This document shows positions 19,433 to 29,804 of a stretch of DNA of 46,722 nucleotides, one piece after another. The position numbers and the translations under genes are program-made. The notes below the pieces were generated by a model that saw nothing but the letters and a program-made list of their open reading frames with translations, was not told the DNA's origin and searched no databases. Within the stretch, counting starts at the first letter, position 1; each line of letters begins with the position of its first letter. The stretch comes from Minisyncoccota bacterium (GTDB lineage: Bacteria; Patescibacteriota; Microgenomatia; UBA1400; UBA12028): positions 1 to 46,722 of the forward strand of contig JACRHV010000006.1 of NCBI GenBank assembly GCA_016211945.1, given 5' to 3'.

Positions 19433-21754
19433 TTACAGTTTGCACTTACTGTACGCGCAGTTCGGGCAGAGGTTGCACCCCTCTTGGTTTTGCATTACAG
19501 TTCCACATTCCGGACATTTTTCTTCATCTGTGGTAATGTCGACGACATCTCCATGTTTGATTTCCTGCCGAATAACGGTAGAAAAATCGTTACGATCGGC
19601 AAGCGGAGTTACTCTATGCTGGCTTTGCATGATCTGCACTGATTTTTTATCCTTTTTCTTATCACTTCCCTGAGACATCACTGAAAGCACCTGAACGCTC
19701 TTGGATCTGTCACGATAAATTGTGATTCCTTTTAGACCTAATTTCCAAGCCAAAATGTAGGCTCCTCGAATTTCCTCAACCGTAGCGTTTGACGGAAAGT
19801 TAATTGTTTTACTCACAGCATTGTCGGTGTGTTTTTGAAATGCGGCCTGCATACGAACGTGCCATTCCCATGAAATATCGTGCGCTGTAACAAAGATGCG
19901 CCGGAGTTCATGCGGAACACTATCGCTATGCTGCACACTTCCCGTTTGTGATACCTCAGCGATAATCGCGTTATACTCACCATTACTTCCAACATATTCT
20001 TTCAATGCATGCTCAAAGTGCGCGTTTACATATGTTAATCCTGATGTATCAACAACATTCTTGTTATAACTCAACGCGAAAATCGGCTCAATACCGCTAC
20101 TGCAATCCGCAGTCATAGAAATTGTTCCTGTTGGTGCGATTGTTGTGATTGCGACATTTCTAAATTTTCTTGGAGAATGTTTGTGTGTATAGCTATGGGT
20201 CACCGGGTCGTATCCACGGGCAAACCAACTCTCCTTCCATCGAGGAAACGATCCCTTTTCCCTTGCCAGTTGCTCCGATGAAATCCAGCTGTTTTCTTGC
20301 ACATGTCGCATCACTTTTTCCGCAAGCTTAACCCCTTCTTCCGAGTTGTATGGAATTCCAAGCTGCACAAGCATATCCGCCCATCCCATGACGCCCAGGC
20401 CTATGCGTCTATTTTTTTTCACCGTTTCTGTAATTTGAGGTAATGGATATTTACACGCGTCAATAACGTTATCTAACATACGTGTTGCAATACGTGCGAC
20501 TTCACCCAACCGTTCCCAATTCACAACACCTTTTCCCTTTGAGTCCATCTTCACAAACGCGGCGAGATTAATCGATCCCAAGTTACACGAGTCAAAACCA
20601 TGAAGGGGTTGTTCACCGCATGGATTTGTTGCATAAATAGGTCCGACGCTATCGCAGAGCGGGTTGTTGCGATTGATCGCATCCCAATAGATCATCCCCG
20701 GATCGCCCGTTCTCCATGCTAAAGAAACAATTTGATCCATAAGCAGTCGTGCAGAGATTTTTTGTATTGGCTCCATAGTGCGTGGATTGCGTAACGCAAA
20801 CTCCGTATCTTTTTCTACCGCTTTCATAAACTCATCTGTCGCACCAACGGAAATATTGAAGTTGCTGATTTCTCCCTCTTCACTTTTACACGTAATAAAC
20901 TCGAGAATATCGGGGTGCCAAGCGGCCAAAATTCCCATGTTCGCACCGCGTTGCTTTCCACCTTGCATAACCTGACGCGTCGCGATATCAAATACCTTCA
21001 TAAATGAAACCGGTCCTGTGGAAAAGCCGCCGGATGATTTGGTGACTGCATCACCGCGGGGACGAAGAGGAGTGAAATCAAAACCCGTACCGCCGCCCGT
21101 CCTATGGACAAGTGCGGTCCACTTTACTGCATCAAAAATGCCTTCCATGCTATCTTCTACTGGTAAGACGAAACAATTTGCGAGTTGATTTTGTGGTGTC
21201 CCAGCATTATTGAGTGTTCTTCCACCGGGCAAAAACTCAAATTTTGTCATGACTTCATAAAACACTTCTCCCCATTTTTTCTGAACTGCTTTTTTTTCTA
21301 CTCCCGCAAGTGTTCGCGCAACACGACGGAACATTTCTGCTGGAGTCTCTGTGGGTTTTCCCTGCTGATCATGAAGGAGATAGCGACGCTCAATAACTTT
21401 AAGTTGATTGATGGAAAGATTGAGGTCATTCTCAACACCAAGAACCGTTTCTGCTTTACGGATTTTTGCGTGTTCTGCTCGATACAAAATGTATGCTTTC
21501 GCGGTTGAAAAATGACCTGCTGCCATGAGAACTTGTTCAACGGTGTCCTGAATCTGTTCAACAGTAACAGGAGATTTTTTTACACCAACAACCTTTTCCA
21601 AAATTCCACGCACTATGCCAGCCAATCGTACCGCATCCTGCTCTCCAAACTCACGCGTCTGAACTCCCGCCTTCTCAATAGCAGTCCCTATTTTTTTCTC
21701 TTCAAATGAAACTTTTGATCCATCTCTCTTTACCACCGTCTTCAACGCAGTCAT
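19433..21754 (-). CDS. nrdJ: Class II (adenosylcobalamin-dependent) ribonucleotide reductase, third copy
   Basis: It reduces ribonucleotides to deoxyribonucleotides with adenosylcobalamin and a thiyl radical. The 773 residues comprise an N-terminal ATP-cone (about 5-95, beginning with TVVKRDGSKVSFE), the reductase barrel and a C-terminal zinc-like/thiol tail with CPECG and CPNCAYSKC. Active-site signs: [16 protein letters not shown] (N-x-C-x-E triad) and DSCNLGSINL. It has no intein. Its ATG overlaps the MazG stop by 4 bp and AAGGAG lies upstream. It is the last gene of the nrd operon and convergent with the small membrane protein gene. The ATP-cone implies allosteric control of overall activity. 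Confidence 0.95.
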   Translation of the reverse strand: MTALKTVVKRDGSKVSFEEKKIGTAIEKAGVQTREFGEQDAVRLAGIVRGILEKVVGVKKSPVTVEQIQDTVEQVLMAAGHFSTAKAYILYRAEHAKIRKAETVLGVENDLNLSINQLKVIERRYLLHDQQGKPTETPAEMFRRVARTLAGVEKKAVQKKWGEVFYEVMTKFEFLPGGRTLNNAGTPQNQLANCFVLPVEDSMEGIFDAVKWTALVHRTGGGTGFDFTPLRPRGDAVTKSSGGFSTGPVSFMKVFDIATRQVMQGGKQRGANMGILAAWHPDILEFITCKSEEGEISNFNISVGATDEFMKAVEKDTEFALRNPRTMEPIQKISARLLMDQIVSLAWRTGDPGMIYWDAINRNNPLCDSVGPIYATNPCGEQPLHGFDSCNLGSINLAAFVKMDSKGKGVVNWERLGEVARIATRMLDNVIDACKYPLPQITETVKKNRRIGLGVMGWADMLVQLGIPYNSEEGVKLAEKVMRHVQENSWISSEQLAREKGSFPRWKESWFARGYDPVTHSYTHKHSPRKFRNVAITTIAPTGTISMTADCSSGIEPIFALSYNKNVVDTSGLTYVNAHFEHALKEYVGSNGEYNAIIAEVSQTGSVQHSDSVPHELRRIFVTAHDISWEWHVRMQAAFQKHTDNAVSKTINFPSNATVEEIRGAYILAWKLGLKGITIYRDRSKSVQVLSVMSQGSDKKKDKKSVQIMQSQHRVTPLADRNDFSTVIRQEIKHGDVVDITTDEEKCPECGTVMQNQEGCNLCPNCAYSKCKL

Positions 21755-22182
21755 TTCTTCTCCTTCTCTTGCTCCGGTTCATACAGTGGATGACCGCCTC
21801 GAGTTGCTGCTTTTATTTTGTAATAGGCCCGATCTTTTTCTTCCTGTGTCATGGTGGGGGAAAAAAGTGATTCTGGATATTTCTTCTCATTTTTTTCCAT
21901 TTTTCTCTCAAATGCTTGTGCGACATCGATTCCAAGTCGATCGCCCAAGTTCACGAGCCACCACAACACATCACTCATTTCTTCACTAATTGCGTCCTTA
22001 ATTTTTTGATTGTTCAGTACTTCATCACCAGTGAGCCACTGAAAATGCTCAAGAAGCTCGGACCCCTCAAGAATCAAGGAAAGTGCTATATCCTTAGGAT
22101 CCTCATTTGTCCATCCTCGCTTTTTTCGAAATATTCGAATAAGCTCTTTTATTTGTGAGAGTGATGTCGTCTGGTCATTCAT
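21751..22182 (-). CDS. MazG-like nucleotide pyrophosphohydrolase
   Basis: A 143-residue all-alpha NTP-PPase of the MazG/dUTPase-like group. The EGSELLEHF segment (Glu-rich helix with ExxE), EEMSDVLWWLVNL (EExxD) and a downstream charged helix supply metal ligands. Such enzymes cleave (d)NTPs to monophosphates and act on dCTP or aberrant nucleotides; which one cannot be told. Homology and an AGGGAG site support the ATG at 22182, not the open frame to 22323. It lies 34 bp behind the Nudix gene and overlaps nrdJ by 4 bp, giving a pool-cleaning enzyme translated together with a reductase. Confidence 0.85.
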   Translation of the reverse strand: MNDQTTSLSQIKELIRIFRKKRGWTNEDPKDIALSLILEGSELLEHFQWLTGDEVLNNQKIKDAISEEMSDVLWWLVNLGDRLGIDVAQAFERKMEKNEKKYPESLFSPTMTQEEKDRAYYKIKAATRGGHPLYEPEQEKEKK

Positions 22183-22216
22183 TTGTTTTTCTCCCTCTGT
22201 GGCGCAGTGTCCCTTT

Positions 22217-22705
22217 TTACAACGTTTTTGCGTAATCATCAAGCATTGTTCTATGATCAAAAGCAACGTTTTCTGGTAATTGATGAAGTGGGAACCATTG
22301 GATATCGGTTGCTTCTTCCTCATTTGCCGTCAACACTCCTTGGTACGTTGCAATAAAACAATGTCCTATGTTCTGTCTTCCATCCAAATCTCTTGCGGGA
22401 TTATCGTAGAGTCTGAAGAACGTGATCGTGCTGACGTCCAAACCAGTCTCTTCTTTTACTTCCCTCTTGGCTGTTTGCTCCAACCGCTCTCCCCAATCAA
22501 CATATCCTCCAGGAAGTGACCACCACCCTTGTTGTGGCATCGCAGCGCGCCGAATAAATAAGACCTCTTTTCTTTCATTGAGCATGATCACCTCAACCGT
22601 ACTACACCGAACGTTATATCGAGCACAGGATGGACAAAACGTCCCAGTTGGAATCTTTCCATTTGGATACTTTGTCCATGTTATAGTGATTTGATCTTTA
22701 GTCAT
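22217..22705 (-). CDS. Nudix hydrolase
   Basis: The 162-residue protein has a complete Nudix box from G67 to L89: G, x5, E73, x7, REVKEETG. This catalyses hydrolysis of nucleoside diphosphates linked to another group. A short CPSC segment near residues 24-27 may bind zinc, as in NUDT12/NadC-like Nudix proteins. The box, GWWSLPGGYVD and the PARDLDGR segment suggest a nucleotide or cofactor substrate (ADP-ribose or oxidised dNTP), which is an inference. The ATG overlaps the membrane protease gene by 8 bp, and AGAGAG lies 5 nt upstream. Confidence 0.9.
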   Translation of the reverse strand: MTKDQITITWTKYPNGKIPTGTFCPSCARYNVRCSTVEVIMLNERKEVLFIRRAAMPQQGWWSLPGGYVDWGERLEQTAKREVKEETGLDVSTITFFRLYDNPARDLDGRQNIGHCFIATYQGVLTANEEEATDIQWFPLHQLPENVAFDHRTMLDDYAKTL

Positions 22706-23609
22706 GCGTTCTCTCTTTCATTAATGCAACGTCAAGATAATCGAGAAAAACATGTTCGTTCATCTCAATCGCACCACTTAATTCTTGAAAAAGTGTGTCA
22801 CCAAAGTCGTATGAAAACTTTTCTTCTACAGCTCTACCATAAACAAAACCAAATACCCCCAGGCCCATACTTAATAAAAACAAGCTAACTCCTAGCCCCT
22901 CATCAATTGAAGTTAATCTTTCACTAAAAATGTTTACCAGCCATGTTGTTAATAACGTTGGAGTTAACGCCAGTGTTGTGATAAGTGCTCTTTTCTCAAA
23001 TATTTTTCTCCGATGTTCCAGTTCATGCGCAAGCGTCCAGGACATTTCAGATTTCAACGCACGAACAAGCTGTCTTTTTATAAATTCCTTTGCACGCGTC
23101 TGTTGTTCTTCCGCTGGAAGTGTATTTGAAAGAGTTCCTTGTTTTGAAGCCTTGAGATACTTTGATCTCCTCTTCATATTTCCTTTTAAAAGACTTCTAT
23201 GAAAATCTGTCCCTAATGTTTTCATTGCCATATATGGCCAATTTGTGGGAAAAAAAGGAGAGGTTACTACTTTTGTTACAAGATCATCTTCATTCATTTT
23301 CTCTTTTGTGAGATATCCATACACATAGCATAATGCTTTCATAAAACTTTGTTGATAAATAAGAATTCTCTTTTTTGATAGTTCATATCTTGCCAGACTC
23401 CCCGGGTCTTCTTCATTTGTAAGCACAACAGAAGAAAGTAGGTTCTCAGGAAAACCAGCCCGCAACAAAACTTCGCGCACTTTGTGCATATCAATTGAGA
23501 AAATTGCTTCTTGTGGAGACATTTTCTCCAACTGAAATGTAAAATCTTCGACTAATTCTGTGGGAACTTCTGCTGTATCAAGATTTTTATTTACCATATG
23601 TTGTTTCAT
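22698..23609 (-). CDS. M48-like membrane zinc metallopeptidase, unknown role
   Basis: The 303-residue protein has a soluble N-terminal half, then SWTLAHELEH, a HExxH zinc-peptidase motif. Two membrane helices follow, then an acidic segment (GRAVEEKFSYDFGD) where M48 enzymes have their third metal ligand, usually written ExxxD. The order HExxH, two helices, Glu matches M48 (HtpX/Oma1-type) peptidases. Similarity beyond that is weak, and the Glu-to-Asp spacing is one residue longer. It starts directly after the stop of the intein-bearing nrdJ and overlaps Nudix. An M48-like protein is unexpected in a ribonucleotide reductase operon. Family is moderately sure; substrate unknown. Confidence 0.65.
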   Translation of the reverse strand: MKQHMVNKNLDTAEVPTELVEDFTFQLEKMSPQEAIFSIDMHKVREVLLRAGFPENLLSSVVLTNEEDPGSLARYELSKKRILIYQQSFMKALCYVYGYLTKEKMNEDDLVTKVVTSPFFPTNWPYMAMKTLGTDFHRSLLKGNMKRRSKYLKASKQGTLSNTLPAEEQQTRAKEFIKRQLVRALKSEMSWTLAHELEHRRKIFEKRALITTLALTPTLLTTWLVNIFSERLTSIDEGLGVSLFLLSMGLGVFGFVYGRAVEEKFSYDFGDTLFQELSGAIEMNEHVFLDYLDVALMKERTHD

Positions 23610-26600
23610 TTACATCGTACACTTGCTCCACCCACAATCTGGACAGCTCACACACCCACTTTCATACTTCAATGAAGCCGCCGCACATTCCGGACACACG
23701 TGTTTTTCCCCACTCGCCGGCTTGTTCGAATGTGTGTGCGCATACTCTACTTCACTCTTTTTCATCTTGGAGACAGCATCTTTTGATAAGGCGCTTTCTT
23801 TGCCTGCAACATTCAATACCTGATCCACTTTGCTTCCATCTCGGTAAATCGTAATTCCTTTCAACCCCAATTTCCACCCCAAAAGATACGCTTTTTTCAC
23901 ATCCTCAATCGTTGCATTATTTGGAAAATTAATCGTTTTACTTACTGAATTATCGATCCATTTTTGCCAGGCAGCTTGTATACGTACATGCCATTCTGGT
24001 GAAATGGTATGCGTTGTCACAAACATACGTTTCTCTTCTCTTGAAAGTTCTTTAACACCATCCAAGTTACCATCGTGTACAACCTGCTTCATGATTTTTT
24101 CTCTAGTTTTTTCATCAAATTTTGACCGCAAAAATTCATCAAATATAGGATCTGCAATGGTAAACTCGCGTGTTGGAGCGTTTGCTGTACTGTCCTCATT
24201 AAAACTTCGCCGAACTTGCACTAAAGAAAATACCGGCTCTATACCAGAACTTGTGTTTGCAAACAATGAAATGGTGCCCGTGGGTGCAATCATCATCACC
24301 GCACAGTTTCGATATCGCTCGGATGTTCCAGCATATATGGAAACATCAAAATTTGGAAATGCGCCACGCTCCTTCCCAAGTTCGATCGATGCTTCCTCTG
24401 CTTTTTTCCGCATAAATTTTGCGATGCGTTCCGCGAGCCGCACGGCTTCCTCGGAATTATATGGTATTCGCATGCGGTACAACATGTGCGCATATCCCAT
24501 AACGCCGATGCCAATACGCCGGTTTCCCTCCTTTACCATCTGTCGAATTTCGTCCAGTGCATAGGTATTAACCTCGATCATGTCGTCTAAAAATCGCACG
24601 CCTAGTTTTACGGATTTCTCGAGGTCATCCCAATCAATCTCCCACTCGCCTTTCTTGTTTTTTATGAGATGACGATTGAGATCAATTGATGTTAAATTAC
24701 ATGATTCATAGGGCAATAATGGTATCTCTCCGCAGTTATGGACAACAAAGCCGTTGGCAATAAAAGAGTGTGTGTCAGGTTCGGTTACATCAAATACGGG
24801 TTCCTCTTCGCCTTCTGTAATCGAAAAAATTTGATCTTCAAACTTCTGTTTATAATATGTTTTTAAAAAGAGTTTATCTATTTTTTCATGATGAAGTGGT
24901 CCAATAAATCCGATTTGTCGAATAAATTCTTGCACTTGATCTTTAGATATCTCCAATTCCCACAAGACCCCATCACTCCCATACCTCACTTTAGTTCCAT
25001 TCGCTTTTGTGTATTCAGGAAAAATAGCAACACGCGCTTTCCTTGATCGATTATATATTTTACTAAAAATTCCAAAGTTAAGGAGTAAAGTCTGTACATC
25101 ACGTAAAAGCTCTTTTGACTTTGAGGTTAAACGAACATATGACGACTTATTTTTTACAAAATTTACAGTACCATCAGCACTAAATAGACCACGCAAAAAC
25201 CCTGAAACCGCTGCTTTATGCATTTTATAAATGCATTCGGGAACACGTTTGAATTCGGAGCGAACAGGAAGAACTCCCAGATCTACTAAGAAATGCGCAA
25301 ATATTTTATTATGCATCCATAATTGATTCGAACGATTATTTGGACTACGATTTGTGATATGAAGACCCCATCCAGAAAGACATTCCTCAAAATATTCTTG
25401 AATTTCTTGTCGTGATTTTCCAAAAGTCACATAGACATAATTATCTTTTGCGTCTGAACGTAATGATCCATCACCAACCAAATACCCTAGAAATTCTCCG
25501 AATCGTTCTGTAGAAACTTTTGGATATGAATCGGGATATTTTTGTGAAAATTCAATAAATGATTCAAGTTTTTTTTCCGCTGACCATAATCCTCTTCCCG
25601 ATTGAATAAGCATAGTATCTTTTAGATTTAAATCTTTTACCTCAATCCAGCCGCGCGTTGTCATAAATTTATGTTCTGCGGTCGCTCGAATAGTGAAGCC
25701 ATATACAGTTTTTATTTCATAAATTTTCTTCATTCCTGTGCATTGAAAATTGTGAGCTTTTCTTGATGAGACTCCATCTTTACTTTTCTCAGCAAGCCTT
25801 GAATCAATCGCCATCAAGACATGCTTTTCTCCATATTTCTTTACAACTTCATCAAACCGTAATAACCCATATTCTGTTGGAATTCGTGCATCACCGGTAA
25901 TACAAGGATTTGTTGCATTTAACACGCCCAAAGAAGGTGTGGGATTATCTTCTTGAAGTCGGTCCAAAAACGCAAGTCCAGGGTCACCTGTTGCCCATGC
26001 GTGTTCTGCAATCAAATCAAAGACCTCACGAGCTTTTACGGTTTTCCACACTTCTCCATTTCGCGGATTCATTAAATCCCACTCCTTATCCGCCTGTACC
26101 GCCTCCATAAATTCGTTTGAAACACCAACGGATATATTGAAATTTTTGATTGTGCCATCCTGATCTTTCAACGTAATAAACTCAACGATGTCCGGGTGGT
26201 CGGCATTCAAAATCGCGATGTTTGCTCCCTGTCGTTTCGCTCCCTGTAAAATTTGTGAGAGTGCTGCAGAATAGGCTTTCAAAAAATCAACGGGCCCTGA
26301 TGACGCCTTAGGTACATTCTTAACTTTGTCACCATGCGGCCGAATTTTCGAGAAATTAAATCCTGTTCCACCGTTGTTTTTATGAACAACAGCAGCATCG
26401 CCTAACGTTTTAAATATTTTTTGGATACTGTCATCGATAGGCAAAACAAAGCAACTTGACAACTGCCCTGTGCCTCCGGGATTCCCAGCCTCAAACATTG
26501 CTTTTCCCGCACAGACAAACTTGAGATTCACCATGCGTTCGTAAAATGCGCGTGCCGTCTCATCAACAATTCCATTCTCGCCCCATTGAATCTCCGCTTT

Positions 26601-27041
26601 TGCCATGTGTCGCGCAACGCGCCACAACATCTCGCCTGGAGTTTCGATCACAACTCCATTCATATCTGTGCGGAGATACCGCTTCTTAACAATTTCGAGT
26701 GCCGTGGGGCTAAGTTCTGGTTCCTGAACGTGAATAGCTTTATTGGCCTTCTGTTGCTTTTTTTCGCCATACAAAATGTAGTATTTTGCCGTCGCAAAAT
26801 ATCCCGCCTCGGCAATCGTAGGCTCTACAACATCCCGAATCTGTTGCACCGTCACTGCGTCATGCTGTGTGCGGACAGACGCAAGTTTTACCTCGACCTT
26901 ACGGACAATACGATCCGCATCTTTTTCCTCATACTCTCCAGTGTCTTTTCCTGCATGAATGATGGATGAAGAAATTTTTTCCATTGAAAACGGAACTTTT
27001 TTTCCATCACGCTTGATCACAAAAACAATAGATACACCCAT
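23610..27041 (-). CDS. nrdJ: Class II ribonucleotide reductase precursor with intein (second copy)
   Basis: The precursor has 1143 residues; removal of a 390-residue intein leaves a 753-residue adenosylcobalamin-dependent reductase. The N-terminal ATP-cone (about 8-95, KRDGKKVPFSMEK) is followed by the barrel with LSSCFVLPIDD, GGTGFNFSKIRP, and N-P-[intein]-C-G-E where the catalytic triad stands. ESCNLTSIDL follows the intein. The C-terminal tail has CPEC and CPDCGWSKC, thiol or zinc ligands. The ATG at 27041 is preceded by AGGGGG at a good distance; a TTG one codon upstream is also open. It lies 9 bp behind the first nrdJ. Without splicing it should be inactive. Confidence 0.95.
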   Translation of the reverse strand: MGVSIVFVIKRDGKKVPFSMEKISSSIIHAGKDTGEYEEKDADRIVRKVEVKLASVRTQHDAVTVQQIRDVVEPTIAEAGYFATAKYYILYGEKKQQKANKAIHVQEPELSPTALEIVKKRYLRTDMNGVVIETPGEMLWRVARHMAKAEIQWGENGIVDETARAFYERMVNLKFVCAGKAMFEAGNPGGTGQLSSCFVLPIDDSIQKIFKTLGDAAVVHKNNGGTGFNFSKIRPHGDKVKNVPKASSGPVDFLKAYSAALSQILQGAKRQGANIAILNADHPDIVEFITLKDQDGTIKNFNISVGVSNEFMEAVQADKEWDLMNPRNGEVWKTVKAREVFDLIAEHAWATGDPGLAFLDRLQEDNPTPSLGVLNATNPCITGDARIPTEYGLLRFDEVVKKYGEKHVLMAIDSRLAEKSKDGVSSRKAHNFQCTGMKKIYEIKTVYGFTIRATAEHKFMTTRGWIEVKDLNLKDTMLIQSGRGLWSAEKKLESFIEFSQKYPDSYPKVSTERFGEFLGYLVGDGSLRSDAKDNYVYVTFGKSRQEIQEYFEECLSGWGLHITNRSPNNRSNQLWMHNKIFAHFLVDLGVLPVRSEFKRVPECIYKMHKAAVSGFLRGLFSADGTVNFVKNKSSYVRLTSKSKELLRDVQTLLLNFGIFSKIYNRSRKARVAIFPEYTKANGTKVRYGSDGVLWELEISKDQVQEFIRQIGFIGPLHHEKIDKLFLKTYYKQKFEDQIFSITEGEEEPVFDVTEPDTHSFIANGFVVHNCGEIPLLPYESCNLTSIDLNRHLIKNKKGEWEIDWDDLEKSVKLGVRFLDDMIEVNTYALDEIRQMVKEGNRRIGIGVMGYAHMLYRMRIPYNSEEAVRLAERIAKFMRKKAEEASIELGKERGAFPNFDVSIYAGTSERYRNCAVMMIAPTGTISLFANTSSGIEPVFSLVQVRRSFNEDSTANAPTREFTIADPIFDEFLRSKFDEKTREKIMKQVVHDGNLDGVKELSREEKRMFVTTHTISPEWHVRIQAAWQKWIDNSVSKTINFPNNATIEDVKKAYLLGWKLGLKGITIYRDGSKVDQVLNVAGKESALSKDAVSKMKKSEVEYAHTHSNKPASGEKHVCPECAAASLKYESGCVSCPDCGWSKCTM
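24735..25904 (-). mobile_element. Intein with LAGLIDADG homing endonuclease in nrdJ
   Basis: A 390-residue in-frame insertion with all splicing features. It begins with Cys1 (CITGDARIPT, block A) and has TAEH at 75-78 (block B). A LAGLIDADG endonuclease carries LGYLVGDGS (139-147) and LRGLFSADG (237-245). It ends with SFIANGFVVHN, His389-Asn390, before Cys+1. Both catalytic acidic residues are present in each motif, so the nuclease may be active. It lies directly before the N-x-C-x-E cysteine of the reductase. The two paralogous genes in the operon have no insertion at this site. Confidence 0.95.
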
Positions 27042-27050
27042 CAAAACCCC

Positions 27051-29135
27051 CTATATACTACATTTGCTATACGCACAACTCGGACACACAAAACACCCCT
27101 CCTGAATAACAAGCGTGGTACTACATTCGGGACATGCCTCATCACCAGGCCTCACTTTTATTAGCGGCGCGCCAACAAACGCCTCGTTGTTAAATGTCTT
27201 TCCATCTTCTTCTCGTTTGCGTTTTGTATCACCGGTCTCCAACACAACCTTGCTTCTGCTTCCCGTAACATACACCGTCATTCCTTTTAATCCTAATTTC
27301 CATCCTTTGAAGTATGCTTTCCAGACTTCGTCTTCTGTTGCTTCTGCTGGAAAATTAATTGTTTTGGAAATGGCATTGTCGACAAACCGTTGCAGTGCCG
27401 CCTCCATCTCAACGTGTTCGCTCACAGGAATGTCACCCGATACAACAAACACTTCACGAATCTCTTTTGGCACATCGTCAAGATCTTGGCATGTTCCGTG
27501 TTGTCTGATCTCCTCAAAAATGGTTTCAATGCGTTTTTCGTCGAGCTTTGCGCGTTCAAGTGATTCTTTAAATAAACGACTCTCATAATACAACTCACGA
27601 AAATCTTGGCCGAGTTTTTCTGCTCCTTCATGTGTTCGCATCACGTAACTCAACGCAAAGACTGGTTCACATCCGTATCCCTCCAAACCAGAAATCGTGG
27701 CAATTGCTCCAGTAGGCTGAATGGTGTTTTGACAGCTGTGACGCACTCCATGTGTTTTGATATTTTTTTCGAGTAACTCCCAGTCTAATTTTGGCATTCC
27801 AACGTGGTGTTTGTAGTCGTGTAATGGTTTTGGACGACTCCAAACTTTGATTCCTTTTACCTTGAGTGTTGCAATATTCTGTTCAGAATAGTCATACCGA
27901 CTTCCTTTTATTCCTGGAAATGCGCCGCGTTCTTGTGCAAGCGCGTTTGATGCGCGTAGTGTGTGGAAACGAATATATTCCATGATTTGGCCGGCAAAAT
28001 CGATGCCTTTTTCGCTCCCATATCGGACTCCAACAGCGTAAAGCATGTCTGCTAATCCCATAATAGAAATACCAATACGTCTATTGCGTTTTGCAGCCTC
28101 TTCCAACTCCGGAACCGCAGAAACATATTTATTCGCATCAACGACATCATCGAGCCAACGCACGGTATACTCGACAGTTTCCGCTAATTTTCCCCAGTCA
28201 ACGCTGTACGGGAACATACCTTTTTTCTTCTCGTCAAGTTTTACGTGTTCCGCAAGATTGATTGAGGCCATACAACAGTTTTCGTACGGAAGGAGGAATT
28301 GTTCTCCGCAAGGATTTGTCGCTTCAAGATCTCCTTGTGATGGGGTTGGATTTTCTCGATTTGCCTCATCCAAAAACAACACCCCTGGCTCCCCATTGTG
28401 ATGCGCAAAATGAACAATGTCATGGAACAACTCCCGCGCCTTAACACGCTCCCACACTTCCCCATTCCGTGGATTTATTAACGGAAAATCAGTATCTTTT
28501 TCCACCGCCTCCATAAACGCATCGGTAATACCAACAGAAATATTAAAATGCTCGATGACACCCTCCCGCTCCTTACAATGAATAAATTCACGAATATCTG
28601 GATGGTGGACAGGGAGAACTGCCATACAGGCCGACCTACGTCCCCCACCCTGACCAATGACCCAAAACGCTGTGTCATAGACCTTCAAGAAGGACACCGC
28701 TCCCGTTGCCTTTCCTTTTGATGAACCAATAGAGTCTCCTTTGGGTCGAATACGCCCAAAGCTAAATCCAACACCCCCACCCGATTGCAGTACGAGCACG
28801 GCATCACGTAGTGTTGTAAATATCCCATCCTGCGTACGACCCATATCATCGCTGATAGGAAGAACAAAACAGTTCGCGAGCTGCCCCCATCCCGTTCCTG
28901 CATTTGCTAAAGTTCGTCCGTTTGGCATAAATCGAAAATCTTGTAAAAGATCTAAAAATTTCTTCTCGATTTCCTGAGGTGTTGAACCATCTCTGTAGTT
29001 ATGCTCTGCCTGTGCAACAACTCGCGCAGTGCGAGACAAAATATCTTTCACTGTCTCTTTTGGATTGCCATCATCATCGCGAAGCGCATAGCGGTTAATC
29101 ATGACTTCTTGTGCGTTCGGCGTTAATTTTTTCAT
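27051..29135 (-). CDS. nrdJ: Class II ribonucleotide reductase, first copy, without ATP-cone
   Basis: This 694-residue adenosylcobalamin-dependent reductase starts directly with the barrel region and has no N-terminal ATP-cone, unlike the two other copies. Motifs: [35 protein letters not shown] (N-x-C-x-E triad) and [10 protein letters not shown]. The C-terminal tail has CPEC and CPSCAYSKC. An insertion with [14 protein letters not shown] near residue 420 is not seen in the other copies. It lies 2 bp behind nrdR and leads the three reductases. Lacking the cone, it should escape dATP shut-off of overall activity (inference from the known role of the cone). Confidence 0.95.
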
Positions 29136-29137
29136 GC

Positions 29138-29611
29138 TTAGCGGCCTTTCTCTCTCTCCATCTCACTTTTTACTTTTCGAATTTCGCTCTCAAAGTCCTC
29201 AAGTGTTTGAAAATCTCTGTACACACTTGCGAATAGAAGATACGAAACGGGATCTACCTTACGTAATCGATTCATCACGAGCTTTCCAATCTCCCAACTT
29301 TTAATTTCATTCGTATGTTTAATACGGAGTTTCCGTTCTATTTCCTCGATAAGCGCCTCAATGTCCTCGACTGAAATAGGCCGTTTCCATGTTGCCTTCA
29401 TCACACCCTTTTTTACTTTTTCTCGATCAAAAGGTTCTCGTTCCCCATTTTTCTTCACCACTGTGAGATCGACTCCCTCAACACGCTCGTAGGTGGTAAA
29501 TCTCTTTTCGCATTTCTCACATTGGCGGCGGCGGCGCATCGTCGCTTGATCCGGCACAATACGACTTTCAAGAACGATAGAGTCATCGTGTGAACAATAT
29601 GGACATTGCAT
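29138..29611 (-). CDS. nrdR: NrdR, ATP-cone transcriptional repressor of ribonucleotide reductase genes
   Basis: NrdR binds dATP/ATP through an ATP-cone and represses nrd genes at NrdR boxes. The 157-residue product has an N-terminal zinc ribbon (MQCPYCSHDD, then CEKCEKRFTTYE) and an ATP-cone at about 47-137 with VVKKNGEREPFDREKV. Both match the family in order and length. The frame is open to 29719, but the MQCPYC start is universal; its GGAGG lies 12 nt upstream, further than usual. Two NrdR boxes lie about 36-83 bp before the start, so it should repress itself and the whole operon. The nrdJ start follows 2 bp behind. Confidence 0.97.
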   Translation of the reverse strand: MQCPYCSHDDSIVLESRIVPDQATMRRRRQCEKCEKRFTTYERVEGVDLTVVKKNGEREPFDREKVKKGVMKATWKRPISVEDIEALIEEIERKLRIKHTNEIKSWEIGKLVMNRLRKVDPVSYLLFASVYRDFQTLEDFESEIRKVKSEMEREKGR

Positions 29612-29646
29612 ATCTCGTGTATTCCTCCAAAACATCTCGCAATAAA

Positions 29647-29662
29647 TCACTAGATATAGTGT
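29647..29662 (-). promoter_or_regulatory. NrdR box 1 (proximal)
   Basis: The minus strand reads ACACTATATCTAGTGA, close to the NrdR box consensus ACACwATATATwGTGT. A -10-like TATATC lies inside the box, so a bound repressor would block the promoter. It is 36 bp from the nrdR ATG. Confidence 0.85.
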
Positions 29663-29678
29663 GCGAATATTCAGTGAA

Positions 29679-29694
29679 ACACTACCACTAGTGT
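29679..29694 (-). promoter_or_regulatory. NrdR box 2 (distal)
   Basis: ACACTA-N4-TAGTGT, a perfect palindrome in its arms. It lies exactly 32 bp (three helix turns) from box 1, the spacing known for paired NrdR boxes. Confidence 0.85.
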
Positions 29695-29804
29695 TCGTCA
29701 ACTGTTCAGAAACGATCAAACTCGATCATTATGTACAATCCAGATTCAAATATATTCCAGCAGTTTTTGAGGAGATAACCGAACACGTTTTATATGCAAG
29801 AATA

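What the first reader, a model, noticed from the sequence alone, without database searches (positions are those of the whole stretch)
24735..25904. Full intein placed exactly before the catalytic cysteine of one nrdJ copy
The 390-residue intein has Cys1, TAEH, two LAGLIDADG motifs and terminal HN before Cys+1. Cys+1 is the cysteine of the N-x-C-x-E triad, so the unspliced enzyme cannot work and the splice junction doubles as the active site. The two neighbouring paralogues have the same NPCGE site but no intein, giving natural empty-site controls within 8 kb.
Basis: partly seen in the sequence, partly recalled or inferred. Interest (0 to 1): 0.6.

Follow-up and report, generated by a model that had tools for sequence, protein, structure and literature searches.

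The report
Known-type intein in ribonucleotide reductase
One of three neighbouring copies of the enzyme that makes DNA building blocks carries a self-removing protein insert exactly in front of its catalytic cysteine; this is real and well formed, but the same kind of insert sits at the same spot in dozens of other bacteria and archaea, so it is ordinary.

Summary
Window 24735-25904 (-) encodes a 390-residue class 1 intein with Cys1, TAEH, a LAGLIDADG homing endonuclease and terminal HN. It lies in phase between NP and CGE of a 1144-aa class II ribonucleotide reductase (NrdJ). Cys+1 aligns with the catalytic cysteine of solved T. maritima NrdJ. AlphaFold gives a confident intein-plus-endonuclease fold (pLDDT 92.8). 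Splicing and homing are inferred, not shown.

It is not unusual. Of the 80 best GTDB matches, the 78 with both junctions readable carry a homologous intein at the same NP|CGE junction, in Omnitrophota, Thermaceae, haloarchaea, DPANN archaea, Microgenomates and others. Close relatives have the orthologous gene with and without it; the 83%-identical orthologue in the same family is empty.

The window's paralogues are weaker controls than implied: 44% and 41% identical proteins, whose orthologues elsewhere carry other inteins. The genome's only detected reductases are these three NrdJ copies, so one copy's dependence on splicing need not threaten survival.

A side lead is more interesting: in eight sampled genomes, inteins at this same site end in a conserved Ser-Arg-Gly instead of Asn/Gln/Asp.

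Verdict: new member of a known kind; low interest.

The parts
23610..27044 (-). nrdJ copy B, precursor gene (1144 aa with the intein, 754 aa without)
   Evidence: Open frame; Pfam Ribonuc_red_lgC, ATP-cone, Ribonuc_red_lgN; TIGR02504 NrdJ_Z above cut-off; alignment of the rejoined exteins to 1XJE
24735..25904 (-). Intein, 390 aa, class 1 with nested LAGLIDADG endonuclease
   Evidence: Motifs and family models; fold model and its PDB matches
24732..24734 (-). TGC codon of Cys+1, the catalytic cysteine of the mature enzyme
   Evidence: Sequence; aligned with the NPCGE cysteine of 1XJE
19433..21754 (-). nrdJ copy A (773 aa), intein-free NPCGE site
27051..29135 (-). nrdJ copy C (694 aa, no ATP-cone), intein-free NPCGE site
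29138..29719 (-). nrdR-like repressor gene upstream of the nrdJ copies (open frame; the coding start is probably the ATG near 29611)
   Evidence: Pfam ATP-cone and Zn_ribbon_NrdR

Best explanation
This is a class 1 intein with a nested LAGLIDADG homing endonuclease, in the middle copy of a three-gene nrdJ cluster of a Microgenomates-like bacterium. The precursor is made whole; the Cys1 acyl shift, transfer to Cys+1, Asn390 cyclisation and the final S-N acyl shift should remove the intein and join NP to CGE, giving an active 753/754-aa B12-dependent reductase. The endonuclease probably recognises the conserved site of an intein-free nrdJ-B allele, and repair copies the intein in. The junction falls on the active site because that stretch is highly conserved, is hard to lose without harm, and supplies a ready Cys+1. 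Shown here: anatomy, site, predicted fold, orthologues with and without the intein, and the same site across phyla. Inferred: splicing, endonuclease activity, arrival by transfer.
For: Motifs and family models; fold model pLDDT 92.8 with full endonuclease-bearing inteins as top PDB matches; splicing residues C1, T75 and H78 in all 86 family members examined, endonuclease Asp145 and Asp244 kept here and in 82 and 84 of 86; catalytic residues of the mature enzyme aligned with 1XJE; same junction in 78 of 80 best GTDB loci; empty orthologues in G001, G002, G009, G038 and occupied ones in G007, G018, G023.
Against: No direct evidence of splicing or DNA cleavage. [quoted passage not shown] The residue before Cys1 is proline, which from general knowledge can slow the first step in some inteins.
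Confidence: 0.93

Rival explanations
1. The intein is a regulatory switch: its splicing responds to redox state or another signal, so the B isoform is held inactive until conditions suit, while A and C serve as constitutive reductases.
For: Cys1 and Cys+1 are both present, and a disulfide between such cysteines has been reported for another intein precursor (reference 25 of PMC5874633). Two redundant intein-free copies exist, so delayed activation of B would be tolerable.
Against: The closest B orthologues work without an intein; the intein occurs in only 4 of the roughly 20 sampled genomes of the order with a B copy, which fits a mobile element better than a conserved switch. The endonuclease is intact, as expected of a mobile element.
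Confidence: 0.05
2. The intein is a dead remnant and copy B is a pseudogene-like precursor that never matures, the cell relying on copies A and C.
For: Two redundant copies lie in the same cluster.
Against: All splicing and endonuclease residues are intact, the frame is open over 1144 codons, and the exteins keep every catalytic residue tested.
Confidence: 0.02

Closest known systems
RIR1/nrdJ inteins at the NP|CGE site (NCBIfam PRK08332; GTDB loci such as L126 Thermus igniterrae, L143 Meiothermus rufus, L142 Halorubrum cibi, L070 and L071)
   Same: Same host enzyme family, same codon of insertion, same splicing blocks and LAGLIDADG endonuclease; the PRK08332 model holds an intein that ends where the copy A and C matches resume, at CGE
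   Different: Sequence: 45% identity at best; host copy is one of three tandem nrdJ genes
NrdJ-1 split intein
   Same: Lies in an NrdJ protein next to the active-site cysteine
   Different: Split, and its native junction is NPC|SEI, one residue further on, with Ser+1 (PMC13123727)
Aquifex aeolicus R2 (class I reductase) intein
   Same: LAGLIDADG intein that splits an active site of a ribonucleotide reductase and is removed efficiently (PMC8772380)
   Different: Sits in the small subunit between two iron ligands
TliVMA, PhoVMA, PI-PfuI and PI-SceI inteins
   Same: Best solved fold matches for the whole intein
   Different: 12-18% identity; TliVMA, PhoVMA and PI-SceI come from V-ATPase subunits

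Membership tests
Class 1 intein | Nucleophile at position 1, block B T-x-x-H, C-terminal Asn, Cys/Ser/Thr at +1 | tested here: met
   C1, T75/H78, H389-N390, Cys+1
Class 1 intein | Splicing (HINT) fold and profile | tested here: met
   PF14890, TIGR01445, TIGR01443 above cut-off; fold matches
Class 1 intein | Self-splicing of the precursor | not testable with these tools
   Needs expression
LAGLIDADG homing endonuclease | Two LAGLIDADG motifs with catalytic Asp | tested here: met
   D145 and D244
LAGLIDADG homing endonuclease | Cleaves the empty target site | not testable with these tools
   Needs a biochemical assay
NP|CGE nrdJ intein allele family | Homologous intein at the same codon of nrdJ | tested here: met
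   78 of 80 best GTDB loci plus relatives G007, G018, G023
Class II reductase NrdJ | N-x-C-x-E, redox Cys pair, C-terminal Cys cluster, NrdJ profile | tested here: met
   TIGR02504 above cut-off, 1XJE alignment, residues invariant in copies A, B and C

The most novel reading that the evidence does not exclude
Splicing at the catalytic cysteine is a domesticated post-translational gate (for example redox-dependent through a Cys1-Cys+1 disulfide) that sets when the B isoform of a three-reductase set becomes active.
Probability: 0.05. Interest if true: 0.55.

Novelty: new member of a known kind. Interest (0 to 1): 0.2.

Why it matters
It adds a well-formed example of active-site intein placement, in a small genome from an order where the same site is found empty, occupied by this lineage, and, in a paralogue, occupied by another lineage. 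That is a natural series for studying intein gain, loss and site specificity. On its own it changes no concept.

Tried and rejected
Chance or assembly artefact: rejected, because the insert is in phase, has all motifs, and sits at a site shared with dozens of independent genomes. Unique placement: rejected. Paralogue-to-paralogue homing: not supported by the intein tree, where the C-copy inteins of G007 and G038 are a separate deep branch, but the site DNA does not exclude recognition. dN/dS between related inteins: synonymous sites saturated, no ratio obtained. Literature searches found no described nrdJ active-site intein in Patescibacteria, but the held library lacks most subscription papers. 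InBase is not held, so the site could not be given its InBase letter. A first script misplaced several C-terminal junctions and was replaced.

Full report
Check of the observation. Copy B of nrdJ (23610-27044, -) reads 1144 codons without a stop and is interrupted in phase at 25904-24735 by 390 codons that begin CITGD and end VVHN, with NP before and CGE after. Intein N- and C-terminal models, the splicing domain and LAGLIDADG_3 all score above curated cut-offs. An AlphaFold model from 36 homologues has mean pLDDT 92.8 and pTM 0.92. Its best solved matches are full inteins with endonucleases: TliVMA, PI-PfuI, PhoVMA, PI-SceI.

The host gene. The rejoined exteins match T. maritima B12-dependent reductase 1XJE at 1e-112, with NPCGE and the partner cysteine 11 residues on aligned. 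All three copies keep these residues and the C-terminal cysteine cluster, so all three look active. The 908-kb genome (100% complete by its record) has no other large-chain hit, no class I small subunit and no class III enzyme. An nrdR-like gene lies directly upstream, behind two NrdR-box-like palindromes whose starts are 32 bases apart (read; one of them found by the pattern scan, where six matches stood against 2.9 expected).

The cluster in relatives. Three neighbouring nrdJ genes corresponding to C, B and A recur in sampled genomes of the same order. B orthologues of G007, G018 and G023 hold homologous inteins at the same codon; those of G001 (83% identical), G002, G009, G019 and G038 are empty. 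In G007 all three copies of the cluster carry inserts: B this lineage, C a different intein (23% identical) at the same codon, and A an insert at another place, near residue 222/223 of copy A. G007 has a further, uninterrupted nrdJ elsewhere. The A copy of G019 has an insert at the same 222/223 place.

Breadth. Of the 80 best GTDB loci, 78 show the NP|C and C-GE junction pair and the other two are cut off on the N side. Hosts include Omnitrophota, Bacillota, Chloroflexota, Deinococcota, haloarchaea, Asgard and DPANN archaea and several candidate phyla. For some loci the C-terminal string printed by that script was an internal look-alike; with a length rule 86 inteins of 359-420 aa were extracted. 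Viral contigs carry such inteins too. In the intein tree the four B inteins of this order form one clade (support 99), next to a group of DPANN archaea (support 89). The extein tree also joins the four B copies (100). Old presence with losses, or spread within the order, both fit. The lower third-position GC of the intein (0.24 against 0.42) is suggestive only, because the same trend is frequent in the family.

Mechanism. The residues needed for class 1 splicing are present and are invariant or nearly so in the family, so the standard four-step reaction is by far the likeliest. Because Cys+1 corresponds to the radical-bearing cysteine of NrdJ (established knowledge), the unspliced chain should be inactive. 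Both catalytic aspartates of the endonuclease are kept, so homing is plausible. The window's paralogues match the B site at 24 and 22 of 31 bases, about as well as the empty B sites of relatives do. DNA alone therefore does not tell whether they can be cut, but the intein lineages found so far follow the gene copy.

Comparison with the known. Reviews state that inteins favour catalytic and ligand-binding sites and list reductases among their hosts (PMC5874633; PMC7765530). The Aquifex R2 intein splits a metal site and is removed (PMC8772380). The NrdJ-1 split intein has the native junction NPC|SEI, one residue later (PMC13123727). The NCBIfam model PRK08332 already contains an intein ending at this position. 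The present case is a new member of a known kind.

Side lead. In eight genomes (G007, G038, G358, G387, G279, G369, G314, G533) an intein at this same site keeps Cys1, TAAH and the endonuclease but ends in SRG before CGE. A review lists Asn, Gln, Asp and Glu as the terminal residues that can cyclise (PMC4031507). Between G007 and G038 this intein is 80% identical and its exteins 75%, so it does not look decayed. How, or whether, it splices is open.

Noticed in passing
L271 and L259:1243-4347 (G007 copy C), L260:1297-4395 (G038 copy C), L272-L276, L280: Inteins at the same NP|CGE site that end in a conserved Ser-Arg-Gly instead of Asn, Gln or Asp, in eight genomes at 45-80% identity; a sister group (L277-L279) ends in Ser-Leu-Asp. 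No cyclising terminal residue, so the last splicing steps are unexplained.
   Followed up: partly
window 19433-29135; L259-L265: A three-gene nrdJ cluster is conserved in sampled genomes of the order, all three copies with intact catalytic residues in the window; why a genome under 1 Mb keeps three class II reductases is unexplained.
   Followed up: partly
L267 (own genome C1:148000-152500): A UDP-glucose-dehydrogenase-like gene with an intein placed between GGS and CFPKD, again directly before what is, from knowledge of the family, the catalytic cysteine.
   Followed up: no
L266 (own genome C15:1-8000): Adjacent GyrB-like and GyrA-like genes each carry an intein ending VHN|S; no LAGLIDADG_3 hit there, and HNH-like stretches in both inserts.
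   Followed up: no
window 29647-29662 and 29679-29694: Two NrdR-box-like palindromes 32 bases apart upstream of the nrdR-like gene, consistent with autoregulation of the nrdR-nrdJ genes.
   Followed up: partly
L259:7479-11183 (G007 copy A), L261:984-4637 (G019 copy A): Inserts of about 480 aa in copy A near residue 222/223, a second insertion place within the same gene family.
   Followed up: no
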